Below are positions 22,850 through 39,160 of a DNA stretch of 64,000 nt, one piece after another; positions within the stretch are counted from its first letter, which is position 1; every line of letters starts with the position of its first letter. The notes under the pieces were generated by a model, which saw nothing but the letters and a program-made list of their open reading frames with translations, did no database searches and was not told where the DNA came from. Source of the DNA: Empedobacter sedimenti (GTDB lineage: Bacteria > Bacteroidota > Bacteroidia > Flavobacteriales > Weeksellaceae); the NCBI RefSeq assembly GCF_030005555.1, contig NZ_JASCQG010000001.1:1-64000 (forward strand), given 5' to 3'. Position numbers and translations under genes: made by a program.

Positions 22850-23575
22850 TTATTTTCTCAAGTAAACGTTTCCGTATTTAGAAGAAAATTCTTGGCGAGG
22901 TTCTTTTCCAATATAAGCTGTAATAGCAGTGTGGAAATCCTCTGATTTAGTAGGTTTTACAGGTAAATCTAAATTTGTAAAAATCTTTCCATAAAAACAT
23001 TCAGCATTTAGTTCGCCAATTTTTTTCTGATCTACAGTAGCGTCAACGCTTCCGTAAGTAGATTTAGCGATTAATGGACCATCAAATGTATTTACTTCAA
23101 CAGTTCCGTAAGTAGATTCAATTTGTGTTTTTGTGTTACGTGGAACTTTGATTTCTAAAACAATATCGATCTGAACTCCAATGCTTGTTATATCAAACTT
23201 TGTTTTGTTTACCTTCTCATATTCTTGAAATTCTTTTTTAGATTTGAAAGTTATTTTATCATCACCCTTGTAAGCAACAACATGCTGAGGTAAATCTTTG
23301 TAATTGTTAACTTTTCCTTCAATCAGTTTTGTATTACCAGCTAAAGTTTGTTCGCTGATAACGAAATCTCCATTATTTTGATTATTATTAATATCTACTT
23401 TTCCAGAAATTTCAATTTCATTTTTATCCCAAGTTGTAATTTTTACAAGTTGCGGATAATCAAACTTTAAGGTTAATTCTTGTCCTTTTTGTGCTTGAAA
23501 TTTTTTCTGTATTGATGTTTGAGCGAATAGACTCGCAGCAAACATTCCTATTACTAAAGTTAATGTTGTTCTCAT
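22850..23575 (-). CDS. exported DUF4097-like protein (distal gene of the sigma operon)
   Basis: 241 aa, with a signal peptide ending in LFAQ. The C-terminal half has recurring YGxVxV-type strands (STYGTVEVNTFDGPLIAKSTYGSVDAT, YGKIFTNL, YGNVYLRK), the hallmark of DUF4097 beta-solenoid proteins. Its start overlaps the previous gene by 4 bp (ATGA), so the two are translationally coupled. Its likely place is the periplasm or outer membrane surface; its molecular role is unknown. Confidence 0.8.
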   Translation of the reverse strand: MRTTLTLVIGMFAASLFAQTSIQKKFQAQKGQELTLKFDYPQLVKITTWDKNEIEISGKVDINNNQNNGDFVISEQTLAGNTKLIEGKVNNYKDLPQHVVAYKGDDKITFKSKKEFQEYEKVNKTKFDITSIGVQIDIVLEIKVPRNTKTQIESTYGTVEVNTFDGPLIAKSTYGSVDATVDQKKIGELNAECFYGKIFTNLDLPVKPTKSEDFHTAITAYIGKEPRQEFSSKYGNVYLRK

Positions 23576-24381
23576 AAAGCTCTTAAATATATTTTACCAT
23601 AATCTGATCTAAAATTAAAATTGCTTCCACCACCATTCATTGTCGCAGTTAATTGATCGTTATATTTTATCATATCCGAGTTGGTTTGCATCTTAATTGG
23701 TAATTCTGGTGCAACTAAGATATCTCCATACGAAGTTGTTACTTTTATATTCGCATTTGCTTTTTTAGGAATTGTAACATCAACTGCTCCATAAATAGAA
23801 ACTACAGAAAGAGGACCTTTTACATTTTGGTTGAAACGTGCATCAATACTTCCGTAAATACTGTTGATTGTCGCAGGACCAGAAATGTTTTCTAATACCA
23901 AATTATTGTAAGTTGCAGAAGCTTCCAACTCATTTTCGATATTTTTGAAATTGACTGAACCTCCAAACTGAGATTGATGTTCGTAAACAATTTTCACTCC
24001 ACGAGGAACTAAAATTTTAATATTTGGAGGATTGATACGGCTTAATTGCTTAACGTCAATAACACCATTTTGTTCTTCAACATTAATTCCTAAACCAGTA
24101 TTGTCAGCTAATCCCATTGCATTTATTGCACGTAATCCCTTTGCGCGTTCGTCTGTATTTTCTTTAGTTTTCTTAGCAGAGAATACAATTTCTTTACCAT
24201 CGTAACCTTCTATAGTTACTCTACCCAAATCAATGTGCAATTTACCTTTGTTAACAGCTAATTTGTATGTTCCGTTATCATCAACAGTTGTTGTTTCTGT
24301 AGACTTAACAGACTTTTCTTGTGCTTGCAACGACATTGCTAATAACATTGTTGCGATAAACATTGTTTTCTTTATCATCAT
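23572..24381 (-). CDS. exported DUF4097-like protein (sigma operon)
   Basis: 269 aa with a signal peptide ending in LQAQ. It is a paralogue of its downstream neighbour: IYGSIDARFNQNVKGPLSVVSIYGAVDVTIPKK and TTSYGDILV repeat the same YGxxxx strand, and both end with YGKIYLR/YGNVYLR. It lies 9 bp after the anti-sigma-like gene. Such proteins are common in Bacteroidota sigma-factor operons. I infer an envelope role sensed or controlled by the sigma system. Confidence 0.8.
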   Translation of the reverse strand: MMIKKTMFIATMLLAMSLQAQEKSVKSTETTTVDDNGTYKLAVNKGKLHIDLGRVTIEGYDGKEIVFSAKKTKENTDERAKGLRAINAMGLADNTGLGINVEEQNGVIDVKQLSRINPPNIKILVPRGVKIVYEHQSQFGGSVNFKNIENELEASATYNNLVLENISGPATINSIYGSIDARFNQNVKGPLSVVSIYGAVDVTIPKKANANIKVTTSYGDILVAPELPIKMQTNSDMIKYNDQLTATMNGGGSNFNFRSDYGKIYLRAL

Positions 24382-24390
24382 AAAAAGTAT

Positions 24391-25224
24391 TTATTGTGAA
24401 ACATTATTTTTTAATAAAACTGCGTAGGCTTCATCTTTTACAAACGGCATTGTTTGTGGGTCTAAAACCATTTCTTGTAATTTCTTTGTTAGTTGTGGAA
24501 CAGTCTTGTTATTATCCATTTTGCCTATAATTCCGATCAATTCCATTTGAACCATAGGATCATCTTGCTGAAGAAAAACGTTTGTTAATTCTTCCGAAAC
24601 TGTTGATTTTGGTGTCTTTTTAGCTAAAACTTCAATCGCATTTAATCGTACAATGGTATTATTGTCATTCAAAGCTTTTTGTTTTAATGCATCTAAGTCA
24701 TTTCTGTTCAAAGCTTCGTATTCACCAAGTTTTGCAATAGCATCAATACGATTACTTGTAGATTGTTCATCATTCAGCGCTAATAAAACATCCTCTTTTA
24801 CATTGTCTGTAATTATTTGATTAGTATTTAAATCGTTTTGTTTAGAGTTTTTAGATTCTTTAATTCTCGAAGCAACAATTGTTTCATTATTTTTAAATTC
24901 TTCGCTAGATTTTTCAAAAATAACAGGATTCTCCTTAATAGCTTCTGGTTTTACTTGAACTGATTTTTTTACAATTTCTTGTTGATTCACATTTAGATTT
25001 TGATCTGAATGTTGATTAAGGACAAAATATAAACCAGCACTTACAACAACCAAGGCACTCGCTGCAATAGACCAATAAGTTGTGATTGATCTTTTCGGAG
25101 TTTCAAGTACTTTGGTTTGTTGCGGAATATTAGCTTGTATTTTTTTCCACAATTCTGCCGAAGGCTCTTTATTTTCAAAAGCTTCTCGGTTGTTATCAAT
25201 ATATTTTTTTAATGGATCATTCAT
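24391..25224 (-). CDS. putative membrane-anchored anti-sigma factor with HEAT-like repeats
   Basis: I use the ATG at 25224 (MNDPLKKYIDNNREAF), giving 277 aa; the longer frame reaches back into the sigma gene. The N-terminal cytoplasmic part has the PSAELWKKIQANI pattern seen in Bacteroidota anti-sigma proteins. One transmembrane helix lies at about 53-75. The periplasmic C-terminal half has helical repeats of HEAT type (ALKQKALNDNNTIVRLNAIEVLAK and ELTNVFLQQDDPMVQMELIGII). It overlaps the sigma gene by 8 bp. Confidence 0.75.
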   Translation of the reverse strand: MNDPLKKYIDNNREAFENKEPSAELWKKIQANIPQQTKVLETPKRSITTYWSIAASALVVVSAGLYFVLNQHSDQNLNVNQQEIVKKSVQVKPEAIKENPVIFEKSSEEFKNNETIVASRIKESKNSKQNDLNTNQIITDNVKEDVLLALNDEQSTSNRIDAIAKLGEYEALNRNDLDALKQKALNDNNTIVRLNAIEVLAKKTPKSTVSEELTNVFLQQDDPMVQMELIGIIGKMDNNKTVPQLTKKLQEMVLDPQTMPFVKDEAYAVLLKNNVSQ

Positions 25225-25789
25225 AATACATGGTTTGTTGTAAAATTTGAGCAATTTTTTGTTTTGCACGATGATATTTGCTCCTCACCGTTGTGTTACT
25301 TATTCCAAGCATATTAGCTATCTCTTCTTGCGGAATATTTTCGAAAAGAAATAAATTGACAATTGTTCTTGCATCAGCTGGTAAATTTTCAATAGCCTTT
25401 TGTATTTCGATTATTTTATCTTCTAATTCGTACTTCTCAATTAATAATTCTTCTCCATCATCTATTATTGATGCATTTTCTATATCGGTAAAATAAACTT
25501 TCTTTTTCCTTAAATGAGAAATTGATTTATTGATTGCTACACGCTTCAACCAAGCACCAAGTTGCTCAATATCTTGTAATTTTTGAATATCAGAAAAAAT
25601 AGAAACAAAAATATCTTGTGTTAAATCTTCTGCTTCAGAAAGATCTACAACCAAACGATAGACCGAATTAAAAACCAATTTAGAATATCGATGATAAAAT
25701 TGAGCATAACCCGTCTCAGCACCTTTTGCACAAAGGCTGACCAATTCTTTATCACTAAGAGAGTTAATTTCTGTTTTCAAGATTCTCAA
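25217..25789 (-). CDS. RNA polymerase sigma factor, ECF (sigma-70 family)
   Basis: 190 aa. Region 2 is YHRYSKLVFNSVYRLVVDLSEAEDLTQDIFVSIF (about residues 31-64). Region 4 is the helix-turn-helix IPQEEIANMLGISNTTVRSKYHRAKQKI (about 153-180). It recruits core RNA polymerase to its own promoters, probably including this operon. It is the first of four overlapping or closely spaced genes: sigma, anti-sigma and two DUF4097-like proteins. No exact TAnnTTTG box lies just upstream, in line with a non-housekeeping promoter. Confidence 0.92.
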   Translation of the reverse strand: MRILKTEINSLSDKELVSLCAKGAETGYAQFYHRYSKLVFNSVYRLVVDLSEAEDLTQDIFVSIFSDIQKLQDIEQLGAWLKRVAINKSISHLRKKKVYFTDIENASIIDDGEELLIEKYELEDKIIEIQKAIENLPADARTIVNLFLFENIPQEEIANMLGISNTTVRSKYHRAKQKIAQILQQTMYYE

Positions 25790-25934
25790 TGTTTCTGTTG
25801 TTTCTATAGAATAGACGCATTAAGTTATGCGATGTTGCACAAATATTTTACTAAATTTTAAATTATTTAGTAAATCTATTGATTGTCAGTGTTTTGAAGT
25901 ATTGTTTTATTGAGGGATAAATGACATATAGACA

Positions 25935-25961
25935 CAAAAAAGCCCCGAAGATAGTCGAGGC
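25935..25961 (-). terminator. orphan intrinsic terminator downstream of the tracrRNA
   Basis: On the minus strand a 7-bp stem GCCTCGA/TCGGGGC (one G-T pair) with a 6-nt loop is followed by six Ts. No minus-strand gene ends here. It may insulate the sigma operon from tracrRNA read-through or end a small RNA. Confidence 0.7.
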
Positions 25962-25988
25962 GCTAAAAAGTATTAATTATATAGTTTA

Positions 25989-26037
25989 TTTTTTTGTATT
26001 CAAAAATCATTCAACAAAACGTTAGAATACAAAAAAA
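25989..26037. repeat. inverted repeat with a 13-bp perfect stem beside the tracrRNA end
   Basis: TTTTTTTGTATTC (25989-26001) pairs perfectly with GAATACAAAAAAA (26025-26037) around a 23-nt loop. The right arm includes the T run that ends the tracrRNA on the minus strand, so the two structures compete for it. Confidence 0.6.
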
Positions 26038-26098
26038 GGCGAGTTGCCCCACCTTGAATGTTCACACAACGGAATGATCCTTATTGTGAGTTCCTTTC
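26031..26098 (-). ncRNA. tracrRNA of the type II-C CRISPR system
   Basis: Read on the minus strand, a 17-nt segment (26084-26100) is the exact complement of the crRNA repeat 5' part (TTGTGAGTTCCTTTCAA on the plus strand). It is followed by the small nexus hairpin GGATCATTCC, and then by a terminator stem AAGGTG/CGCCTT with a run of Ts at 26031-26037. This order (anti-repeat, nexus, terminal hairpin) is that of known type II-C tracrRNAs. The promoter box at 26103-26110 predicts a start near 26098 and an RNA of about 68 nt, with about 15 nt of anti-repeat. The 5' end could also lie further upstream. Confidence 0.85.
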
Positions 26099-26102
26099 AA
26101 TA

Positions 26103-26110
26103 CAAATATA
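26103..26110 (-). promoter_or_regulatory. candidate tracrRNA promoter -7 element
   Basis: On the minus strand TATATTTG matches TAnnTTTG exactly and sits directly before the anti-repeat. Confidence 0.6.
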
Positions 26111-26131
26111 GAGATAAAATATTTATATATG

Positions 26132-26149
26132 ATTACGTGAAACCGTAAT
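26132..26149. promoter_or_regulatory. inverted repeat between the divergent tracrRNA and cas9 promoters
   Basis: ATTACG and CGTAAT form perfect 6-bp arms around a 6-nt spacer. The site lies 22 bp from the tracrRNA -7 box and 10 bp before the cas9 -7 box, a good place for an operator acting on both. No regulator is known. Confidence 0.4.
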
Positions 26150-26158
26150 TGCGCAAAT

Positions 26159-26166
26159 TATTTTTG
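26159..26166 (+). promoter_or_regulatory. candidate cas9 promoter -7 element
   Basis: TATTTTTG matches TAnnTTTG exactly, 29 bp before the ATG at 26196. Start of transcription is expected near 26171. Confidence 0.5.
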
Positions 26167-26195
26167 ATGTAATTTAATGCACAAAAGAAAATCAT

Positions 26196-29100
26196 ATGAC
26201 TAAAAATATACTTGGATTGGATTTGGGAACCAACTCGATTGGTTGGGCTTTTGTTAAAGAAGGTCAAGATAATACAGAGCAAACTTCTATTGAAAAAATT
26301 GGTGTTCGAGTAAATCCTCTTACAACCGATGAACAAACTAATTTTGAAAAAGGTAAGCCTATTACAACTAATGCTGGTCGTACTTTATCTCGTTCGGCTC
26401 GACGAAATTTACAACGTTTTAAATTACGTCGTGAAAATTTAATTCAAATTCTGAAAGCTCAAAATTGGATTTCGGATGAAACTATTTTAGCTGAAAATGG
26501 TAATAAAACGACTTTTGAAACTTTTAGATTACGAGCTTTAGCCGCAGAACAACAGTTAGAATTACATGATTTAGCACGAGTGTTATTAATGATTAATAAA
26601 AAGCGAGGTTATAAAAGTTCACGTAAAGTGAATAATTCTGAAGAAGGATCTTTGATTGACGGAATGGATATTGCGAAAAAGCTATATCATGAAAACTTGA
26701 CTCCTGGTCAATTTGTTTTGGATTTATTAAAATTTGGAAAAAAGAAAGTTCCTGATTTTTATCGATCGGATTTACAAGCAGAATTTGATAAAATATGGAG
26801 TTTTCAAAAGCAGTTTTATCCCGAAATTTTGACTGATGAATTTAGAGAAACTATAAAAAATAAAGGTCAAAAAGTTACTTCTCAAATTTTTTATACAACT
26901 TATAAATTCAATACTGCAGAAAATAAAGGAACGAGAGATGAAAAAAAGTTGCAAAATTATAAATGGCGTAATGAAGCGTTATCTAAACAATTAGAGAAAG
27001 AAGAAGTTGCTTATATTTTAGCTGATATTAATGGTCAAACTTATAATTCTTCTGGTTATTTGGGCGCAATTTCTGATCGAAGTAAAGAATTGTATTTCAA
27101 TAACCAAACGGTTGGACAATATCAATATACTCAATTACAAAGTAATCCACATGCACGATTAAAAAATCAAGTGTTTTATCGTCAAGATTATATGGATGAG
27201 TTTGAAAAGATTTGGGAAGTTCAAGCCAAGGGTCGTGAAGCTGTTTTTACAGATGCTTTAAAAGAAGAACTTCGTTATGTTATTATTTTTTACCAACGAA
27301 AACTAAAATCTCAAAAAGGTTTGATTTCAATCTGTGAGTTTGAACAAAGAGAAATTGTAAAAGATGGTAAAAAGAAAACCGTTGGTTTACGTGTTGTTCC
27401 AAAATCTTCACCTTTATTTCAAGAATTCAAAATTTGGCAAATTCTTCATAATGTCAAGCTGAAAAATAAAGCGACAAAAGAAGTTTTAGCTTTAAATCAA
27501 GAAGACAAGCAGTTTTTATTCGATGAATTAAATCTTAAAGGAAACTTAACGGCTACAGAAGTTTTAAAATTAATAGTTGATAAACCTAAAGATTGGGAAA
27601 TTAATTATACGAGTTTAGAAGGAAATAGCACTAGTCAAGCACTTTATAATGCTTATTTAACTATTCTTGATAACGAAGGTTACGATGTTCGCGAAGAGTT
27701 AAAACTAAAATTAAATAAAGACGAAATTACGTTAGCCGATATTGATAAATCGGCTGCTGAAATCAAAGAAATGGTTCGTGCAATTTTCAATCATTTGGAA
27801 ATTAAGACTGAAATTTTGGATTTCAATGCAGAGTTAGAAGGAAAAGCTTTTGAAGAACAATTATCTTTTCAGTTGTGGCATCTGTTGTACGCGTATGAAG
27901 AGGATAATTCGCCAACTGGAATGGATACTTTGTATCGATTGTTAGAAGAAAAATTTGGTTTTAATAAAGAGCAAGCAAAAGTAATTGGTGCAGTTGCTTT
28001 TCAAGATAATTATGGAAGCTTGAGTAGTAAAGCGATTCGTATAATATATCCATTTATAAAAGAGAATGAATATTCTACTGCTTGTGATTTGGCTGGGTAT
28101 CGACATTCCAAAAACTCATTAACCAAAGAAGAATTAGAAAACCGAGAATTAAAATCACGTTTAGATAGCTTACCTAAAAATAGCTTACGTAATCCTGTGG
28201 TTGAAAAAATTCTAAATCAGATGGTAAACGTGGTAAATACCTTAATTGATACAGAAAATGATAAATTAGAGAAAGCAGGAAAAGAAAGAAATTTTCAATT
28301 TGACGAAATCCGTATTGAGTTAGCTCGTGAACTAAAAAAGAATGCTAAAGAACGTGGAGAGCTAACAAAAGCTGTTAATCAAGGTAAATTAGAACACGAG
28401 AAAATCGTTAAAATTCTTCAATCAGAAGATGGAATCAAGTTTCCTACTCGTAATGATATTATCCGTTATAAATTATACCAAGAACTAAAAAATAATGGTT
28501 ACAAAGATTTGTACACCAATCAATATATAGAGCGTAAGGATATTTTCACTAAGAAATACGATATTGAGCATATTATTCCTCAATCTCGTTTGTTTGATGA
28601 TAGTTTTTCGAATAAAACATTAGTTCCTCGTCAAATCAATTTAGATAAAGGTAACAAAACTGCCGCTGATTACATTTTTGATGCATTTGGACAAGATAAA
28701 TTAAATGAATTTTTGCAACGTGTAGAAGCTTTGTTTAACCAAAAAGAAGAAGGAATTTCTAAAGCCAAATACAAAAAACTAACAATGAAGGGAGCTGAAA
28801 TTGGCGAAGGTTTTATTGAGCGTGATTTGCGAGACTCTCAATACATTGCTAAGAAAGCCAAGGAAATCTTGTTTCAAATTACCAAATCAGTACTTTCTAC
28901 TTCGGGCTCGGTAACGGATCGTTTGCGAGAAGATTGGGATTTGGTAAATGTAATGAAAGAGCTAAATTTAGAGAAATATCGTTTGGCAGGATTGACAGAA
29001 ATGCAAACAACCAAAGATGGAAACCCGAAAGAAGTAATCAAAGATTGGACAAAACGTAACGACCATCGTCATCATGCGATGGATGCTTTAACAGTTGCGT

Positions 29101-30476
29101 TTACAAAGCGTAGTTTTATTCAATATTTAAACAATCTTAATGCGCGTCGAAATGATGAATATGACAGTATTTCTAATGCTAAAGAAAGAAAATCAATCGA
29201 TACGAATAACCTAAAAATTTCGAGTAAAGATGCTTTAGGAATTGAAGAAAAAGAAACGCATAAAGTGCACGACAAAAAAGGAAATTATAAACGTGTATTT
29301 AATGAGCCAATTCCAAATTTCAGAGAAATTGCAAAGCAACATTTGGAAGGTGTTTTGGTTTCTCATAAAGCGAAGAATAAAGTTGTCACTAGAAATATTA
29401 ATAAAATAAAAGGAAGCGATAAAGTTCAGATTGCTTTAACACCTCGTGGGCAAATGCATAAAGAAACCGTTTACGGAAAAATTAAACAATATGCATTTAA
29501 AGAAGAGAAAGTTTCGGCAAAATTTGATGAATCGACTATCGCTATGGTTTCGAATCCTCAATACCGAGCACTTTTATTGCAACGCTTAATTGAAAATAAC
29601 AATGATCCTAAAAAAGCTTTTACGGGTAAAAATACTTTAGCTAAAAATCCAATTTTATTAAAAGATGGAAGTGAATTACCTGAAAAAGTAAAATTGATGT
29701 GGTTAGATGATGATTATACAATTCGTAAAGATGTTGGACCAGATTTAAAAATTGATAAAGTTATTGACGAAGGTGTAAAACGAATTTTACAAACTCGTTT
29801 AGATAAATTTAATGGAGATGCAAAAAAGGCGTTTTCAGATTTGGAACAAAATCCAATTTGGTTAAACGAAGATAAAGGAATTGCGATAAAACGAGTTACT
29901 ATTTCTGGAGTTAAAAATGCAGAACCTTTACATACAAAAAAAGATCATTTGGGAAACGATGTTTTAGATGACAATGGAAATAAAATTCCAGTTGACTTTG
30001 TAAGCACCGGAAATAATCATCACGTAGCAATTTACGAAGATGAGAAAGGGAACTTACAAGATAAAGTGGTTTCTTTTTATGAAGCCGTAGCTCGAGTAAA
30101 TGCTGGTTTATCTATCGTGGATAAAATTCACAACGCTCATTTAGGTTGGAAATTTCTATTTACGATGAAACAAAATGAAATGTTCGTCTTTTCATCTGAA
30201 GCTTTCGACCCTAATGAGCTTGATTTGTTAGATAGAAAAAATCAAGCTTTAATAAGTAAACATTTGTTTCGAGTACAAAAGTTTTCAAAAGTGGAATATG
30301 GCAACTCTGCTGTGAGAGATTATGTTTTTAGACATCACTTAGAAAGTGCTATTTCAGATGTAAAAGAGTTGCGTGATAAAACGTACAAAGTTTTTAAAAG
30401 CTTAGGAGAATTTAAAGGTTTAATTAAAGTTCGAACGAATCATTTGGGAGAAATTATTCATATAGGCGAATATTAA
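26196..30476 (+). CDS. cas9: CRISPR-associated endonuclease Cas9 (type II-C)
   Basis: 1426 aa, long for a II-C Cas9 but usual in Bacteroidota. RuvC-I is ILGLDLGTNSIGWAF with catalytic Asp9. The Arg-rich bridge helix follows (RSARRNLQRFKLRRENL, about residues 67-83). RuvC-II is IRIELARE with Glu708. The HNH block is YDIEHIIPQS with His792, Asn806 and Asn815. RuvC-III is HHAMDAL with His960 and Asp963. All residues needed to cut both strands are present, so the nuclease is predicted active. The C-terminal part (about 1050-1426) should hold the wedge and PAM-interacting regions. It is the first gene of cas9-cas1-cas2, with neither csn2 nor cas4, which defines II-C. Confidence 0.97.
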   Translation: MTKNILGLDLGTNSIGWAFVKEGQDNTEQTSIEKIGVRVNPLTTDEQTNFEKGKPITTNAGRTLSRSARRNLQRFKLRRENLIQILKAQNWISDETILAENGNKTTFETFRLRALAAEQQLELHDLARVLLMINKKRGYKSSRKVNNSEEGSLIDGMDIAKKLYHENLTPGQFVLDLLKFGKKKVPDFYRSDLQAEFDKIWSFQKQFYPEILTDEFRETIKNKGQKVTSQIFYTTYKFNTAENKGTRDEKKLQNYKWRNEALSKQLEKEEVAYILADINGQTYNSSGYLGAISDRSKELYFNNQTVGQYQYTQLQSNPHARLKNQVFYRQDYMDEFEKIWEVQAKGREAVFTDALKEELRYVIIFYQRKLKSQKGLISICEFEQREIVKDGKKKTVGLRVVPKSSPLFQEFKIWQILHNVKLKNKATKEVLALNQEDKQFLFDELNLKGNLTATEVLKLIVDKPKDWEINYTSLEGNSTSQALYNAYLTILDNEGYDVREELKLKLNKDEITLADIDKSAAEIKEMVRAIFNHLEIKTEILDFNAELEGKAFEEQLSFQLWHLLYAYEEDNSPTGMDTLYRLLEEKFGFNKEQAKVIGAVAFQDNYGSLSSKAIRIIYPFIKENEYSTACDLAGYRHSKNSLTKEELENRELKSRLDSLPKNSLRNPVVEKILNQMVNVVNTLIDTENDKLEKAGKERNFQFDEIRIELARELKKNAKERGELTKAVNQGKLEHEKIVKILQSEDGIKFPTRNDIIRYKLYQELKNNGYKDLYTNQYIERKDIFTKKYDIEHIIPQSRLFDDSFSNKTLVPRQINLDKGNKTAADYIFDAFGQDKLNEFLQRVEALFNQKEEGISKAKYKKLTMKGAEIGEGFIERDLRDSQYIAKKAKEILFQITKSVLSTSGSVTDRLREDWDLVNVMKELNLEKYRLAGLTEMQTTKDGNPKEVIKDWTKRNDHRHHAMDALTVAFTKRSFIQYLNNLNARRNDEYDSISNAKERKSIDTNNLKISSKDALGIEEKETHKVHDKKGNYKRVFNEPIPNFREIAKQHLEGVLVSHKAKNKVVTRNINKIKGSDKVQIALTPRGQMHKETVYGKIKQYAFKEEKVSAKFDESTIAMVSNPQYRALLLQRLIENNNDPKKAFTGKNTLAKNPILLKDGSELPEKVKLMWLDDDYTIRKDVGPDLKIDKVIDEGVKRILQTRLDKFNGDAKKAFSDLEQNPIWLNEDKGIAIKRVTISGVKNAEPLHTKKDHLGNDVLDDNGNKIPVDFVSTGNNHHVAIYEDEKGNLQDKVVSFYEAVARVNAGLSIVDKIHNAHLGWKFLFTMKQNEMFVFSSEAFDPNELDLLDRKNQALISKHLFRVQKFSKVEYGNSAVRDYVFRHHLESAISDVKELRDKTYKVFKSLGEFKGLIKVRTNHLGEIIHIGEY

Positions 30477-30487
30477 AATGTAAACAT

Positions 30488-31713
<1,226 letters not shown>

Positions 31714-31720
31714 AAATTAA

Positions 31721-31756
31721 AAAATCCGATTGAAAATTTATTTTCAATCGGATTTT
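31721..31756. terminator. strong bidirectional terminator between cas2 and the CRISPR array
   Basis: A perfect 16-bp stem AAAATCCGATTGAAAA/TTTTCAATCGGATTTT with a 4-nt loop. It can end the cas operon on the plus strand and the pre-crRNA on the minus strand. Confidence 0.9.
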
Positions 31757-31818
31757 ACATTTTTTCTCATTTCTAAATTTCTTCTCAAAACCTTTCTGAT
31801 AAAGGATTTCAAAATGAG

Positions 31819-34532
31819 GTTGTAATTACTTTGATAAATATACCAAAATTTGAAAGGAACTCACAACTACCCCTTATACCTTTAAAAAAAAGAGGTTGTT
31901 GTAATTACTTTGATAAATATACCAAAATTTGAAAGGAACTCACAACATCCTGTTATCATTAAAGACGCTATCCATAGTTGTAATTACTTTGATAAATATA
32001 CCAAAATTTGAAAGGAACTCACAACTATAGTGTTACTGGTGGCTTTGTGAATTTTGTTGTAATTACTTTGATAAATATACCAAAATTTGAAAGGAACTCA
32101 CAACTATTAAACAGGTTTATAAGTTTGTTGCAATGTTGTAATTACTTTGATAAATATACCAAAATTTGAAAGGAACTCACAACTACAATTAGATGATACA
32201 ATTACTACAGCTGGTTGTAATTACTTTGATAAATATACCAAAATTTGAAAGGAACTCACAACTATTGGCTTTTATGCTTATTTTCAAGGTAAGTTGTAAT
32301 TACTTTGATAAATATACCAAAATTTGAAAGGAACTCACAACACAGAGAGACAAGTAATAGAGATACGACAAGTTGTAATTACTTTGATAAATATACCAAA
32401 ATTTGAAAGGAACTCACAACTTAGCTCCTTCAGTTAGTTTTTCCATAAACGTTGTAATTACTTTGATAAATATACCAAAATTTGAAAGGAACTCACAACA
32501 AACAAATTAGAGAGAAGTTATGAGAAATGGTTGTAATTACTTTGATAAATATACCAAAATTTGAAAGGAACTCACAACAGACCGATAATTGAACATGGTA
32601 AAGGGTGCGTTGTAATTACTTTGATAAATATACCAAAATTTGAAAGGAACTCACAACAATGAATGAAGATGTAGTTAGATTTCAATTGTTGTAATTACTT
32701 TGATAAATATACCAAAATTTGAAAGGAACTCACAACACAGAGTTGATTATGAAAACATAGTAATCGGTTGTAATTACTTTGATAAATATACCAAAATTTG
32801 AAAGGAACTCACAACGAGACTACGATTGTCGTGTTGAAATCTGTTGTTGTAATTACTTTGATAAATATACCAAAATTTGAAAGGAACTCACAACAATGAT
32901 GTTAAATCATTATATAAATAGTCAGTTGTAATTACTTTGATAAATATACCAAAATTTGAAAGGAACTCACAACAGACAAAGAAACGTCTAAAAATTCAGA
33001 ACCGTTGTAATTACTTTGATAAATATACCAAAATTTGAAAGGAACTCACAACTTATTGTAATCATTTTTATCTTTTTCAATTGTTGTAATTACTTTGATA
33101 AATATACCAAAATTTGAAAGGAACTCACAACTCAAGTAAAACACTTTTTGAGTTAGTTGTGGTTGTAATTACTTTGATAAATATACCAAAATTTGAAAGG
33201 AACTCACAACAGTATTTAAAGTATCGTTGAATGTATTTTGGTTGTAATTACTTTGATAAATATACCAAAATTTGAAAGGAACTCACAACTACGACATTCA
33301 AATTGGGGGTCGAAATTTAGTTGTAATTACTTTGATAAATATACCAAAATTTGAAAGGAACTCACAACATCGGTTTCAAATCATTTTTTACAGCTTGTGT
33401 TGTAATTACTTTGATAAATATACCAAAATTTGAAAGGAACTCACAACAATGTTCTATTTGTACATTCTTCTGAATAAGTTGTAATTACTTTGATAAATAT
33501 ACCAAAATTTGAAAGGAACTCACAACTCGCATTCAATGGAGGATTTACGACCAAAAGTTGTAATTACTTTGATAAATATACCAAAATTTGAAAGGAACTC
33601 ACAACAAACCGATTTCTTTTTATCCCGCGTCTTTGGTTGTAATTACTTTGATAAATATACCAAAATTTGAAAGGAACTCACAACCTTCAAAAATATCAAT
33701 AGCCAACCCAATAAGTTGTAATTACTTTGATAAATATACCAAAATTTGAAAGGAACTCACAACAAAGTCAGTGGTTCGAGTCCATTCGTCTGCGTTGTAA
33801 TTACTTTGATAAATATACCAAAATTTGAAAGGAACTCACAACGGTGTAAATAACGTCTTGCCTCTTAATATGGTTGTAATTACTTTGATAAATATACCAA
33901 AATTTGAAAGGAACTCACAACTATGAGAATAATACACTTTTAATGTCTTGTGTTGTAATTACTTTGATAAATATACCAAAATTTGAAAGGAACTCACAAC
34001 TACACGTTATAACATTGTTACAGGTGGTCGGTTGTAATTACTTTGATAAATATACCAAAATTTGAAAGGAACTCACAACTGATGATCCCAACTTAGTTAA
34101 TGTTCTTGAGTTGTAATTACTTTGATAAATATACCAAAATTTGAAAGGAACTCACAACACCGAAAAGCCTCAATGCAATCATAAATGGGTTGTAATTACT
34201 TTGATAAATATACCAAAATTTGAAAGGAACTCACAACACATCGTAACGGATATCGTCTGCCAAAGCTGTTGTAATTACTTTGATAAATATACCAAAATTT
34301 GAAAGGAACTCACAACCGTAAACCGCTAATCTTTGTGGTCAATAATGTTGTAATTACTTTGATAAATATACCAAAATTTGAAAGGAACTCACAACAATTG
34401 AATTGCGATTCCGATTCCGCTACAAGTTGTAATTACTTTGATAAATATACCAAAATTTGAAAGGAACTCACAACATTGAAGATACAACTAATCAAGAAAA
34501 GAAAGTTGTAATTACTTTGATAAATATACCAA
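31819..34532 (-). CRISPR. type II-C CRISPR array: 34 full 49-nt repeats, one 28-nt repeat fragment, 34 spacers
   Basis: Repeats start every 79 nt from 31819. Each is 49 nt (plus strand begins GTTGTAATTACTTTGATAAA and ends AAAGGAACTCACAAC) with 5-bp terminal inverted repeats GTTGT/ACAAC. Spacers are 30 nt. All full repeats that I read are identical. The last copy (34505-34532) keeps only its first 28 nt. The tracrRNA anti-repeat shows that crRNAs are made from the minus strand, as spacer followed by GTTGTGAGTTCCTTTC. In that direction the fragment is the first, upstream repeat. No leader fits between it and osmC, whose stop is 9 bp away. The other flank (31757-31818, 62 nt of AT-rich DNA) is the only possible leader-like stretch. 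Confidence 0.98.
33764..33793. other. CRISPR spacer 25 (from the left) resembling a tRNA 3' end
   Basis: On the plus strand the spacer contains AGTGG-TTCGAGT-CCATT, a tRNA T-arm with a 5-bp stem (one G-T pair) and a 7-nt T-loop in the usual form. Seven nucleotides that would be the acceptor 3' strand follow, and a stretch that fits a variable loop precedes it. No tRNA gene is in this window to compare with. Confidence 0.65.
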
Positions 34533-34541
34533 TAGCCCTTA

Positions 34542-35009
34542 CTATATCACAAAACAAACTCCATTATGTTCAATACCAAAATTGCATGAGTTAGCAATAA
34601 AACACAATCTATTGGCTTCTTTATGCAATGAGTTGGCTAAATCAATTTGATTAGAATCTGTGATATAAACGATTGGATTCAAAATTACTTTCGTTATTCT
34701 ACCACTTCCATCACTATTTACTTCTAAAAAAGCCTCTGACTCGTCTGAATATGATACAACTTCAATATTATTCTGAGCGCAACAATACAAATAAGACATC
34801 ATATGACAAGAGGTTAAACTACTCAGCAAAAGATCTTCAGGATTATATAGTTTCGGATCGCCTTTAAATGCTTTTGCAGCAGAAACCTCCAAAGTAGGTT
34901 TGTCTTTTATATAAATTAAATGAGATTTTATATATGTTCGTTGACCTGAATTTTCTGTTTTAATTGGTGACTTCCAGTCTAACTCTACTTTAAATTGATG
35001 TGTATTCAT
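34542..35009 (-). CDS. OsmC-family peroxide-reductase-like protein
   Basis: 155 aa. The family block YNPEDLLLSSLTSCHMMSYLYCC carries Cys68, and ANRLCFIANSC carries Cys136 and Cys142. Two such cysteines form the thiol peroxidase centre in OsmC/Ohr enzymes, which reduce organic hydroperoxides. The YhfA-like branch is also possible, as the cysteine context is not that of classic Ohr. The gene runs toward the CRISPR array, and I see no terminator: its TAG stop is 9 bp from the repeat fragment. A good promoter box lies upstream. Confidence 0.85.
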   Translation of the reverse strand: MNTHQFKVELDWKSPIKTENSGQRTYIKSHLIYIKDKPTLEVSAAKAFKGDPKLYNPEDLLLSSLTSCHMMSYLYCCAQNNIEVVSYSDESEAFLEVNSDGSGRITKVILNPIVYITDSNQIDLANSLHKEANRLCFIANSCNFGIEHNGVCFVI

Positions 35010-35040
35010 ATATTTATAATTCTTAATGAAGGAGAATATT

Positions 35041-35048
35041 CAAAAATA
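35041..35048 (-). promoter_or_regulatory. candidate osmC-type gene promoter -7 element
   Basis: On the minus strand TATTTTTG is an exact TAnnTTTG match, 31 bp before the start codon at 35009. Downstream on the same strand lies CTCCTTCATTAAG, which may include a ribosome-binding region. Confidence 0.5.
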
Positions 35049-35096
35049 GTTCATTCAATCTAAATGATATAATTAGTTTTTATATTAAGTCTTTCC

Positions 35097-35104
35097 TATT
35101 TTTG
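35097..35104 (+). promoter_or_regulatory. candidate promoter -7 element of the M28 peptidase gene
   Basis: TATTTTTG matches TAnnTTTG. Transcription would begin near 35109, downstream of the TTG at 35106, so the ATG at 35124 is the start. Confidence 0.55.
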
Positions 35105-35123
35105 TTTGTATAAATTTTTTTCA

Positions 35124-36074
35124 ATGAAATATCTTATTGCGATTCTTATAATTTCATCTTGTGTAAAGTCTTTTGCGCAAGAAATTGAAGTCAAAAATCT
35201 TAAAAAACACGTTTATTTTTTAGCTGATGACAAAATGAAAGGAAGAGGAACTGGAAGCGAAGAAAATTTGAAAGCTGCAAAATATATTGCGAAAGAATTT
35301 AAAAAATATAAACTTCAACCTTTAGGAGAAGATGGATATTTTCAAGGATTTGAGGCGAAAGTAAATAAAGTAAAAGTTGTAGATAGTATTCGTTCTGCGA
35401 AAAATGTGATTGCTTTTTTAGATAACAAAGCGCAAAAAACGATTGTGATTGGTGCACATTACGATCATTTGGGAGAGGGAAAGCAAGGGAGTTCTTTGGC
35501 GAAAGATAGTTACGGAATGATTCACAATGGCGCTGATGATAATGCTTCTGGCGTTGCTGGTTTGTTAGAATTGGCGAGATTTTACAGTAAAAATAAAGTA
35601 ACAGAACCTGTTAATTTTTTATTTATTGCTTTTGGTGCAGAGGAGTTAGGTTTGGTTGGTTCACGTTATTTTGTGAAACATTCAACGTATGATTTATCGA
35701 AAATACATTGGATGTTGAACATGGATATGATTGGTCGTTTGAACAAAGAATCTGGTGTTTCAATTATAGGTTATGGAACTTCTCCAACTTTTGAAACGAT
35801 TTTTAATGAAATTAATCCGACTGATTTTGTCAAATTTTATACAGGTTACGAAGGTAGAGGCGGCTCGGATCAAACTTCATTTTATGAGAAAGATATTCCA
35901 GTTTTATTTTTCCATACAGGCGGCCACGACGATTATCACAAACCAACAGATGATGCAGATAAAGTAAATTATGAATCATTGAAAGGAATTCTTAATCTCG
36001 AAAAAGCTGTGATTGAGGGAAGTTTCAAAATTGAAACAATGCCGTTTAGAAGCACAGATAAAACTGAAAAATAA
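35124..36074 (+). CDS. M28-family zinc aminopeptidase, exported
   Basis: 316 aa from the ATG at 35124 (signal peptide MKYLIAILIISSCVKSFAQ). The five zinc ligands of the family can be placed: His in GAHYDHLG, Asp in GADDNASG, catalytic and binding Glu pair in FGAEELGL, Asp in NMDMIGR, and His in GGHDDYHKPTDD. It hydrolyses N-terminal residues of peptides in the periplasm or outside the cell. It is a monocistronic gene, divergent from osmC. Confidence 0.92.
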   Translation: MKYLIAILIISSCVKSFAQEIEVKNLKKHVYFLADDKMKGRGTGSEENLKAAKYIAKEFKKYKLQPLGEDGYFQGFEAKVNKVKVVDSIRSAKNVIAFLDNKAQKTIVIGAHYDHLGEGKQGSSLAKDSYGMIHNGADDNASGVAGLLELARFYSKNKVTEPVNFLFIAFGAEELGLVGSRYFVKHSTYDLSKIHWMLNMDMIGRLNKESGVSIIGYGTSPTFETIFNEINPTDFVKFYTGYEGRGGSDQTSFYEKDIPVLFFHTGGHDDYHKPTDDADKVNYESLKGILNLEKAVIEGSFKIETMPFRSTDKTEK

Positions 36075-36109
36075 TTGATAAAAATCTAAAATTATTTTTT
36101 TTCAATCCG

Positions 36110-36117
36110 TATTTTTG
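36110..36117 (+). promoter_or_regulatory. candidate promoter -7 element of the radical SAM gene
   Basis: TATTTTTG matches TAnnTTTG and lies 16 bp before the TTG start, so the leader is only about 12 nt. Confidence 0.5.
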
Positions 36118-36133
36118 CAACAAATTTCAACGA

Positions 36134-38329
36134 TTGAAAACGGATCTTTTATTAATCACACCACCTTTTACGCAATTAAATACACCATATCCTGGAACAG
36201 TTTACTTAAAAGGATTTCTAAACACACTTTCATATTCAACTTTTCAAGCTGATTTAGGTTTAGATGTTATCTTACAATTGTTTTCAAGAAAAGGTTTAGT
36301 TAATTTATTTGAATTTATTCAAAATCAAGAAATTGAATTAGGTGATAATAGTAAAAGAATGGTGTTGTTAAGCGATGAATATATCGCGACTATTGATCCA
36401 GTTATTCGATTTCTACAAGGTAAAAATTCTACCTTAGCAGATTCTATTATTCAAGATGGATATTTACCAGAAGCTTCTCGTTTTGCAGAGGTTGAAGATT
36501 TGGAATGGGCTTTTGGCTCGATGTCTTTTCAAGATAAAGCGAAACATTTAGCAACTTTATATTTAGAAGATTTATCGGATTTAATTATTGAAGCGGTTGA
36601 CGAAAATTTTGGTTTTTCTCGTTATGCAGAACGTTTGGGAAGATCGGCGAATTCTTTTGATGAATTGTATCAAGAATTACAAAAAGAGTCAACTTATATT
36701 GATAAAATTACACTTTCGGAATTAGAGAAATTAATTCAGAAAACGAATCCAAAAATGATTGGTTTTTCGGTTCCTTTTCCAGGAAATTTATATTCGGCTT
36801 TTCGTTGTGCGCAATATATTAAAGCAAATTATCCTGAAATTGTTGTGGATATGGGTGGAGGTTTTCCAAATACAGAATTACGATCTTTAAGCGATCCACG
36901 AGTATTTGAGTTTTTTGATTTTATTACATTGGATGATGGCGAAGCACCGACAGAACAGTTGCTAAAATACATCAATCAAGAAGTTGAAATTTCAGAATTG
37001 AAAAGAACGTTTGCACTTCAAAATCAACAAGTTTCTTATATCAACAATCAAACTGTTCGCGATTATAAATTTAGCGAAGTTGGAACGCCAGATTATACGG
37101 ACATCAAATTAGATCAATATATTTCTGTCATCGAAGTGGTTAATCCAATGCATCGTTTGTGGAGTGATGGACGTTGGAACAAGCTGACTATGGCGCATGG
37201 TTGTTATTGGGGAAAATGTACGTTTTGTGATATTTCGTTAGATTATATTAAGATTTATGAACCAATTGCGGCAAAACAAATTGTAGACAGAATGGAAGAG
37301 TTGATTGAAACAACTCAAAATACAGGTTTCCATTTTGTTGATGAAGCTGCTCCACCAGCATTAATGAGAGAAGTTGCGTTAGAAATTCTTCGAAGAAAAT
37401 TGACCGTAACATGGTGGACAAATATCAGATTCGAGAAAAGTTTTACCTACGATTTGTGCCGATTATTAAAAGCTTCGGGCTGTATTGCGGTCTCTGGAGG
37501 ATTGGAAGTAGCTTCGGATCGATTATTAAAATTGATTGATAAAGGTGTAACAGTGGAGCAAGTTGCCGTTGTAAATCGAAATTTTACCGAAGCTAGAATT
37601 ATGGTGCATGCATATTTGATGTATGGTTTTCCGACACAAACGAAGCAAGAAACGATTGATAGTTTGGAAATGGTTCGTCAAATGTTTGAACTTGGAATTC
37701 TTCAATCAGGATTTTGGCATCAATTTGCAATGACAGCACATAGTCCAGTTGGGTTGAATCCAGAGAAATTTCAAGTGATTAATCATAGTACTGAATTAGG
37801 TACTTTTGCGAATAATGATATGATTCACGAAGAAAAATCAGGCTTAATTCATGATCAATTTTCGTATGGATTAAAGAAATCATTGTTTAATTATATGCAC
37901 GGCGTTGGTTTTGAATTATCGCTGAATGAATGGTTTGATTTTAAAGTTCCGAGAACATCAATTCAGTCAAATTATATCGAAACAGTACTGAATAACGAAA
38001 CTTTTGTAACGCATAAACCAACGCAAAAAGTAGTTTGGTTAGGAGGGAAGCCTCAAATAGAATTTGTTACGAAAACCAAAAAAGGGAAGACTTTTGAGAA
38101 TGCTGTTTTACAGTTTCATACCAAACAAGATTATCTTGAAATTGTTGTGGACAAAGAGATTGGCGAATGGTTGATTGATTTTGTTCAATACTTGAAAGAA
38201 AGTCCAAAAGCAATTTCATATCAACAAATGAAACAAAGTTTTGAAGAAAAAATACAAATTGATTTTGAGATTTTTATCTATTCAAAACAAGCCGAAAAAT
38301 TAAAAGAAACAGCTTTGCTGATTGTATAA
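36134..38329 (+). CDS. radical SAM protein with an N-terminal B12-binding-like domain
   Basis: 731 aa starting at a TTG (MKTDLLLITPPF). The N-terminal 300 residues fit a Rossmann-type B12-binding domain (IGFSVPFPGNLYSAFRCAQYIK, VDMGGGFPNTELR), although no DxHxxG is seen. The radical SAM barrel has HGCYWGKCTFCD with Cys357, Cys362 and Cys365, that is Cx4CxxC instead of the usual Cx3CxxC. GFHFVDEAAPP and VSGGLEVASDRLL fit later barrel motifs. The C-terminal region (about 560-731) is unassigned. The reaction is unknown. A methyltransferase or tailoring role is possible but not shown. Confidence 0.85.
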   Translation: MKTDLLLITPPFTQLNTPYPGTVYLKGFLNTLSYSTFQADLGLDVILQLFSRKGLVNLFEFIQNQEIELGDNSKRMVLLSDEYIATIDPVIRFLQGKNSTLADSIIQDGYLPEASRFAEVEDLEWAFGSMSFQDKAKHLATLYLEDLSDLIIEAVDENFGFSRYAERLGRSANSFDELYQELQKESTYIDKITLSELEKLIQKTNPKMIGFSVPFPGNLYSAFRCAQYIKANYPEIVVDMGGGFPNTELRSLSDPRVFEFFDFITLDDGEAPTEQLLKYINQEVEISELKRTFALQNQQVSYINNQTVRDYKFSEVGTPDYTDIKLDQYISVIEVVNPMHRLWSDGRWNKLTMAHGCYWGKCTFCDISLDYIKIYEPIAAKQIVDRMEELIETTQNTGFHFVDEAAPPALMREVALEILRRKLTVTWWTNIRFEKSFTYDLCRLLKASGCIAVSGGLEVASDRLLKLIDKGVTVEQVAVVNRNFTEARIMVHAYLMYGFPTQTKQETIDSLEMVRQMFELGILQSGFWHQFAMTAHSPVGLNPEKFQVINHSTELGTFANNDMIHEEKSGLIHDQFSYGLKKSLFNYMHGVGFELSLNEWFDFKVPRTSIQSNYIETVLNNETFVTHKPTQKVVWLGGKPQIEFVTKTKKGKTFENAVLQFHTKQDYLEIVVDKEIGEWLIDFVQYLKESPKAISYQQMKQSFEEKIQIDFEIFIYSKQAEKLKETALLIV

Positions 38330-38334
38330 AACAT

Positions 38335-38361
38335 AAAAACCTTGATAATTCAAGGTTTTTT
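38335..38361 (+). terminator. terminator after the radical SAM gene
   Basis: AAAAACCTTGA/TCAAGGTTTTT around a 4-nt loop, followed by Ts. Confidence 0.85.
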
Positions 38362-38372
38362 ATCAATAAAAC

Positions 38373-38497
38373 CGTCAATTCGAGTGAAATTCTTATAGAA
38401 TTTCGTATCGAGAATAAGGTTTTAGAAGTTAAAATTTATCTTAGTTCTCGATACAATTTTTATTCATTTCATTTCTAAAAATCACTCGAACTGACGA
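38373..38497 (-). repeat. palindromic intergenic element, copy 1
   Basis: A 125-bp element with 15-bp terminal inverted repeats (CGTCAATTCGAGTGA and TCACTCGAACTGACG, one mismatch) and an inner inverted pair GTATCGAGAA/TTCTCGATAC. Read on the minus strand it aligns along its whole length with the copies at 60734 and 63026. It has no coding capacity. Confidence 0.75.
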
Positions 38498-38527
38498 ATT
38501 TTAATTCAAATTGAAAATTCTTTATGA

Positions 38528-39160
38528 TTAATTTTTGTCAAATGATTTTAAAGAACCATCAGCATTAAACATTCCTGTATAATTTCCTCTTGTACCTTGT
38601 ACGTTTGCCATCCATCTTAGTTCGCCTGTAGCTGGATTCATCGCATAATAAAGTGCTCCCAAAGGTTGCGCTCCTTCAATATCTTTTGATTTTGCTTCAA
38701 CTTGTTTGTTGATGTTTGCAACCGTTTCAAATTTGATATCTTTTAGCGGGAAAACATTGTCATCCATACTTCCTCCACCAGAAATTTGAACTGGTTGTGG
38801 CTCTTGCCATTTTCCGTTTTGGAACAAATAATCATCTACGTTTTCTGGTTTCGTAGGATCTTGAATTGCTAATTTAATTCTACCATCGCCATAAAAATAA
38901 ACTTGTTGAAATACTTTGATATCTTTTCCTTTGAATTTTGGTAATTCTTTCAATTCCTTCTCAGCTTTATTTAATAAAGCAACGTCATTTAATAAATTTC
39001 CGCTTGTTGTAGCTTCTCCAGAGTCAACATCTTCTGTCGTTTCGTTGTCACTTTTTGCTTCAACATTTTCCGTATCAGTTTCTGTAGCTTTTTTGTCATC
39101 TTTACAAGAAGTAAAAACTAAGGCAGAGATTGCTAAAATTGCAAATAAATTCTTTTTCAT
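38528..39160 (-). CDS. putative lipoprotein of unknown function (210 aa)
   Basis: A signal peptide with lipobox FTSC is followed by an acidic Thr/Glu/Asp linker (to about residue 55). A compact domain of about 150 residues follows, with LPKFKGKDIKVFQQVYFYGDGRIKLAIQDP and YYAMNPATGELRWMANVQG. This resembles lipoproteins of the Bacteroidota with a beta-sheet fold but no assigned activity. It has its own promoter with both elements. The function is unknown. Confidence 0.78.
   Translation of the reverse strand: MKKNLFAILAISALVFTSCKDDKKATETDTENVEAKSDNETTEDVDSGEATTSGNLLNDVALLNKAEKELKELPKFKGKDIKVFQQVYFYGDGRIKLAIQDPTKPENVDDYLFQNGKWQEPQPVQISGGGSMDDNVFPLKDIKFETVANINKQVEAKSKDIEGAQPLGALYYAMNPATGELRWMANVQGTRGNYTGMFNADGSLKSFDKN

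What the first reader, a model, noticed from the sequence alone, without database searches (positions are those of the whole stretch)
34505..34541. CRISPR array fused to the 3' end of osmC with no leader; pre-crRNA may come from osmC read-through
The tracrRNA anti-repeat fixes the crRNA strand as minus. On that strand the array begins at 34532 with only the last 28 nt of a repeat, and osmC (same strand) ends at 34542, 9 bp upstream. No promoter or leader fits, and I see no terminator after osmC. So either osmC transcription runs into the array, tying immunity to an organic-peroxide stress gene, or promoters lie inside the repeats as in Neisseria II-C. The retained half-repeat holds TTGG and TATATTTA (7 of 8 to TAnnTTTG), candidates for such a promoter. 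Read-through is my inference.
Basis: partly seen in the sequence, partly recalled or inferred. Interest (0 to 1): 0.8.

Follow-up and report, generated by a model that had tools for sequence, protein, structure and literature searches.

The report
Ordinary leader-distal end of CRISPR array
The half-repeat beside the osmC gene is the ordinary old end of a CRISPR-Cas9 array whose repeats each look like a small promoter, so immunity is probably not tied to osmC; as a by-product, related arrays that lost part of this end repeat mostly kept its promoter half.

Summary
In detail: beside osmC the array ends in the last 28 nt of a repeat, 9 bp from the osmC stop, no terminator between, crRNA strand minus. 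The leader is not missing: it lies at the other end, between cas2 and the array, looks conserved in relatives and holds a two-way terminator. That is the known layout of flavobacterial type II-C, where arrays are reported to be transcribed from the repeats towards the leader. A link to osmC is not supported: osmC turned up in 1 of 101 related array loci (this one), the neighbouring ORF points into the array in 28 of 56 arrays, and osmC lies elsewhere in relatives. Repeat promoters are supported: 53 of 57 distinct repeats carry the TAnnTTTG box on the crRNA strand (shuffle mean 18, maximum 29; other strand 3), 48 of those 53 with TTG at promoter spacing. The first-transcribed repeat is cut short in 30 of 59 arrays; 27 of the 30 keep the box (p = 0.006 against even breakpoints). 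Minor read-through is not excluded; there are no RNA data.

The parts
26030..26110 (-). tracrRNA region: box TATATTTG (26110-26103), anti-repeat (26100-26084), hairpin and T-run near 26037-26030
   Evidence: sequence; box scored 6/6 (no TTG at 18-22 nt there); RNA ends are inferred by eye
26196..30476 (+). cas9 (1426 aa)
   Evidence: TIGR01865, 451.9 bits against cut-off 100
30488..31378 (+). cas1 (type II)
   Evidence: TIGR03639, 311.7 bits against 120
31375..31713 (+). cas2
   Evidence: TIGR01573, 64.2 bits against 24.5
31714..31818 (.). leader on the cas2 side, with a two-way intrinsic terminator at 31721-31756
31819..34474 (-). 34 full 49-nt repeats with 30-nt spacers; each repeat has TTG at positions 2-4 and TATATTTA at 26-33 on the minus strand
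34505..34532 (-). truncated first-transcribed repeat (last 28 nt); box TATATTTA at 34528-34521 kept
34550..34553 (-). TTTG in the 3' end of osmC, 21 nt upstream of that box: possible substitute -33 element, not beyond chance
34542..35009 (-). osmC-family gene (155 aa), neighbour of the array, not judged part of the system

Best explanation
This is the leader-distal (oldest) end of a type II-C CRISPR array, probably in an Empedobacter-like bacterium. Each repeat carries its own Bacteroidota-type promoter (TTG, about 21 nt, then TAnnTTTG) pointing out of the repeat into the next spacer on the minus strand, so pre-crRNAs start inside the array, run towards cas2 and probably stop at the two-way terminator in the leader. 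The first-transcribed repeat has no spacer before it and so does not need its tracrRNA-pairing half. That half has been lost here, and the promoter half that serves the first spacer remains. osmC is next to it because a block carrying the CRISPR locus and osmC was recombined into this place. Shown: the anatomy, the conservation of box and spacing, the leader's place, and the lack of conservation of the osmC neighbourhood. Inferred: start sites, direction, use of the half-repeat as a promoter, and the import.
For: Leader-like sequence on the cas2 side in relatives (by eye) and two-way terminator there. In R. [quoted passage not shown] the F. columnare II-C array is reported transcribed towards the leader, on eight reads (passages). 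Box in 53 of 57 distinct repeats on the crRNA strand against 3 of 57 on the other, shuffle mean 18.2, maximum 29; exact box 16 of 57 against 1.4 and 0. TTG 18-22 nt upstream in 40 of 45 repeats with an early box and 8 of 8 with a late box. In this clade exact TAnnTTTG starts 21-50 nt before ORFs on the sense strand 32 times against 3 on the antisense strand, in 137 upstream regions without cas9. First-transcribed repeat: 21 full, 8 interrupted, 30 truncated of 59; 27 of 30 truncated keep the box, p = 0.006. The terminal repeat is no template for new repeats and has no spacer before it, so promoter use is the function left to it (inference).
Against: No RNA data. In a single AT-rich repeat the motif is weak evidence alone (5 of 6 specified letters). 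Substitutions in the box of terminal repeats (2 of 336) are not significantly rarer than 3' of it (16 of 785; p = 0.12). TTG at -33 is not kept in the replaced flanks: 4 of 35 at gaps 20-22, one of them L107's own, so truncated copies may be weak promoters. The repeat's TTG lies in the tracrRNA-pairing half, so its conservation is confounded. Loss from the outer side alone would also favour keeping the inner half. Three truncated copies lost the box (L062, L070, L101). Repeats and arrays are related by descent; the tests treat them as independent after collapsing near copies.
Confidence: 0.8

Rival explanations
1. osmC transcription reads through into the array and is the main source of pre-crRNA, tying immunity to osmC expression.
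For: Same strand, 9 bp apart, no terminator between; an exact box TATTTTTG lies about 35 nt upstream of the osmC start (read).
Against: osmC found in 1 of 101 array loci; the 4 same-genus relatives with a strong cas9 match (G205, G206, G208, G212) have osmC elsewhere; nearest ORF co-oriented in 28 of 56 arrays; signature of an imported block; published inference of repeat promoters in Flavobacterium.
Confidence: 0.08
2. Both: repeat promoters do most of the work, and weak osmC read-through adds crRNAs for the oldest spacers.
For: No terminator after osmC; the truncated repeat has lost its own -33 element.
Against: Untested; would be peculiar to this genome.
Confidence: 0.3
3. The box is conserved for spacer integration or repeat structure, not for transcription.
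For: All repeats but the first-formed are copied during acquisition, so any integration signal would be conserved.
Against: The box lies about 7 nt further on in 8 of 53 repeats, and there TTTG at positions 8-11 keeps the spacing (7 of 8 against 8 of 45, p = 0.0003; not corrected for relatedness); truncated terminal repeats, which are not copied, mostly keep the box (27 of 30).
Confidence: 0.12

Closest known systems
Flavobacterium columnare B185 II-C locus (PMC8092290, passages read)
   Same: II-C; leader-end acquisition; array reported transcribed towards the leader (eight reads); TTG motif 33 bp upstream of each spacer; terminal repeat marked in the figure legend
   Different: 36-nt repeats; parDE genes between cas9 and array; the passages read say the TAAAT promoter of other II-C arrays is absent and name only TTG, no -7 box
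Flavobacterium psychrophilum CN46 II-C (PMC10309648, passages read)
   Same: RNA-seq shows a transcribed array; repeat promoter proposed; TAnnTTTG named, but for cas9
   Different: In the passages read the repeat promoter is described by TTG only
Riemerella anatipestifer CH-2 CRISPR1 (PMC6008519, passages read)
   Same: Same gene order, tracrRNA upstream of cas9, 47-nt repeats, 30-nt spacers, leader between cas2 and array
   Different: Spacer entry shown by experiment there; crRNA start not treated in the passages read
Neisseria meningitidis II-C (Zhang et al. 2013; not read, recalled and cited in the passages)
   Same: A promoter in each repeat, transcription towards the leader
   Different: Another promoter type and 36-nt repeats (recalled)

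Membership tests
Type II-C CRISPR-Cas | cas9, cas1, cas2 without csn2 or cas4 | tested here: met
   names the three; one search lists no other plus-strand ORF of 60 aa or more between 26196 and the array
Type II-C CRISPR-Cas | tracrRNA with anti-repeat | tested here: met
   26084-26100, 17 nt identical to repeat positions 2-18 (read)
Type II-C CRISPR-Cas | leader on the cas2 side, array transcribed towards it | tested here: inconclusive
   leader position supported; direction only from the tracrRNA strand, no RNA
Repeat-encoded promoter arrays | promoter motif in each repeat on the crRNA strand | tested here: met
Repeat-encoded promoter arrays | transcription start at each repeat | not testable with these tools
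   needs 5'-end mapping
osmC-CRISPR operon | conserved adjacency | tested here: not met
   1 of 101 loci; 0 of 4 same-genus genomes with a strong cas9 match
osmC-CRISPR operon | joint transcript | not testable with these tools
   needs RT-PCR or RNA-seq

The most novel reading that the evidence does not exclude
Across Bacteroidota the type II-C repeat is a compact two-box promoter of the phylum's own kind fused to a tracrRNA-binding half. At the first-transcribed position the binding half is free to decay, be replaced or be split by inserts, while the promoter half is kept, so terminal repeats are natural experiments that separate the repeat's functions. In this window the lost -33 element would be replaced by the 3' end of osmC, making a hybrid promoter for the oldest spacer.
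Probability: 0.6. Interest if true: 0.5.

Novelty: new member of a known kind. Interest (0 to 1): 0.35.

Why it matters
It removes an attractive but unsupported link between stress response and immunity, and it gives the repeat-promoter idea for Bacteroidota a testable form (box, spacing, expected start roughly 8-13 nt before each spacer). It also shows how to read a half-repeat at the end of a II-C array: as the old, first-transcribed end, not as a lost leader.

Tried and rejected
Rfam scan of 24000-37000 at E up to 0.1: nothing. Sigma-70 scan of 34380-35120: 5 promoter-like sites against 4.3 in shuffles. A -33 TTG supplied by the new flank in truncated repeats: not enriched; given a box of at least 5/6 in the window outside the array, a TTG at 18-22 nt occurs about 14% of the time (0.0019/0.0138), so the in-register TTTG from osmC is only suggestive. 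Substitution rate in the box of terminal repeats: trend only. The first count of 39 non-full terminal repeats (35 keeping the box, p = 0.0014) was corrected to 30 truncated (27 keeping it, p = 0.006) after finding 8 interrupted copies and one copy with an indel, L107. L066 was dropped before the counts because its end could not be aligned. Totals of TAnnTTTG within 100 nt upstream of ORFs are equal on the two strands (57 sense, 62 antisense); only the position profile separates them. Many antisense sites lie 71-100 nt upstream (46 of 62, falling to 11 of 23 without cas9), where the tracrRNA promoter sits in front of cas9. Guide-like words from the interrupted units against the cas9 upstream region in L057 and L060: no match of 9 nt or more printed.

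Searches for a published -7 box in II-C repeats: in an open-access library only; one search for osmC-like read-through was judged by its listing. I read passages of five papers and none in full. A published account elsewhere is possible. PMC9067536 and PMC9367070 gave nothing on repeat promoters in the passages shown (the word promoter does not occur in either main text).

Full report
What is there. The window holds a complete type II-C locus: tracrRNA region (minus, about 26110-26030), cas9, cas1, cas2 (plus), a 105-nt leader (31714-31818) and 34 full 49-nt repeats with 30-nt spacers, then a 35th repeat cut to 28 nt at 34505-34532. osmC, on the minus strand, stops at 34542, 9 bp away. No terminator-like site lies in 34380-35120. 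The anti-repeat fixes the crRNA strand as minus.

Where the leader is. [quoted passage not shown] The window's leader has a 16-pair hairpin scored as a terminator on both strands (z -5.1 and -5.7), able to end both the cas operon and minus-strand pre-crRNA. In R. anatipestifer, with the same gene order, new spacers enter there (PMC6008519, passages). In F. columnare the II-C array is reported to be transcribed from within, towards the leader, on only eight reads (PMC8092290, passages). So the osmC side is the leader-distal end, where a damaged terminal repeat is expected.

The sample. Some genomes occur in both sets. 101 of 141 gave an array by the script's criteria. Of these 101, 22 ends were not resolved (contig or locus end, or N) and 79 were. 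I removed 9 same-genome duplicates and 10 with similar flanks (a loose cut, some by chance), leaving 60, then dropped L066, leaving 59.

The promoter in the repeats. The script kept repeats of 45-51 nt (L151 at 36 nt and L147 at 41 nt fell out), 73 distinct, 57 after collapsing those with up to 4 mismatches. On the crRNA strand 53 of 57 have at least 5 of the 6 specified letters of TAnnTTTG from position 18 on; shuffles give 18.2 on average and 29 at most of 1000; the opposite strand gives 3. Exact boxes: 16, 1.4 (maximum 6) and 0. In 45 of the 53 the box starts before position 30 and TTG lies 18-22 nt upstream in 40; in 8 it starts at 31-32 and TTG lies 19-20 nt upstream in all 8, with TTTG at positions 8-11 in 7 of 8 against 8 of 45 (p = 0.0003, not corrected for kinship). 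The exact box also starts 21-50 nt before ORFs on the sense strand in this clade: 36 against 4 antisense in 179 regions, 32 against 3 in 137 regions without cas9 (window and 40 loci, some homologous). An exact TATATTTG stands in front of the window's tracrRNA. The window's repeat has TTG, 21 nt, TATATTTA. From the usual distance between box and start (recalled), RNAs should begin roughly 8-13 nt before each spacer.

The end repeat. In the 59 arrays the first-transcribed repeat is full in 21 (L107 counted here after an indel was seen), split by an insert in 8 and cut short in 30. In 27 of the 30 the cut lies upstream of the box, against 68% expected for breakpoints spread evenly over detectable lengths (p = 0.006). 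Over all 59, the box score is at least that of the array consensus in 55; it is lower in L062, L070, L101 and, by one letter, L102. The outer half is the tracrRNA-pairing half, which a repeat with no spacer before it does not need; the inner half is the promoter for the first spacer. A purely outward-in decay would also favour the inner half, so this is support and not proof. The -33 element is generally not kept in truncated copies.

osmC. A relative is present in all 14 genomes of the genus searched but I found it beside a II-C array only here: 1 of 101 loci, though some of these end soon after the array, and in none of the four same-genus genomes with a strong cas9 match (G205, G206, G208, G212). 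The nearest mechanical ORF of 100 aa or more beyond the array points into it in 28 of 56 arrays and away in 28; 3 of 59 had too short a flank. In G207 and G208, whose peptidase next to osmC is 95% identical to the window's (the name M28 is recalled), the order is a uvrA-like gene (name by look), osmC, two genes, a HEAT-gene relative, the sigma factor and the peptidase, with no CRISPR locus between. In the window the stretch from about 22850 to 35150 is only about 69-75% identical where it aligns, between flanks of 87% and 94-95%, and osmC has changed places. The simplest reading is an imported block carrying the CRISPR locus and osmC; I did not look for a donor.

Verdict. The finding describes an ordinary leader-distal end. 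The read-through link is not supported; the repeat-promoter option is, with a comparative case that I did not find in print in the searches named. All claims about transcription await RNA data.

Noticed in passing
L119, L108, L152, L158, L102, L135, L042, L057 (array ends): In 8 of 59 arrays the tracrRNA-pairing half of the leader-distal repeat lies upstream of the promoter half on the same strand, split from it near position 15 by an insert of about 45-90 nt (in L152 the nearest intact half is 255 nt away); 0 of 59 show it on the opposite strand. L119 has at least 3 and L108 has 2 such long repeats in tandem with spacers of about 30 nt. Function unknown.
   Followed up: partly
L057, L060, L042 between cas2 and the array: Copies of the same split-repeat unit also lie on the leader side; in the genomes G064, G054 and G001 the unit matched only at the CRISPR locus (7, 9 and 2 places), and in L057 it sits between two leader-like sequences.
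   Followed up: partly
window 22850-35150: Block of low identity to G207/G208 between well-conserved flanks, carrying two genes, a HEAT gene, an ECF-type sigma factor, the CRISPR locus and osmC: likely import by recombination.
   Followed up: partly
L076 (G208): A close relative carries a II-C locus elsewhere whose cas9 match comes in pieces with stops inside, with 13 repeats and a full terminal repeat.
   Followed up: no
L151: A 36-nt II-C repeat (Cyclobacteriaceae MAG) still has a GATCTTTG box with TTG 19 nt upstream, suggesting the promoter layout does not need the longer repeat.
   Followed up: no
window 38360-38535: Stretch downstream of the radical SAM-like gene is 84.5% identical to L224 10185-10359, upstream of the peptidase gene there: a possible dispersed intergenic repeat.
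   Followed up: no
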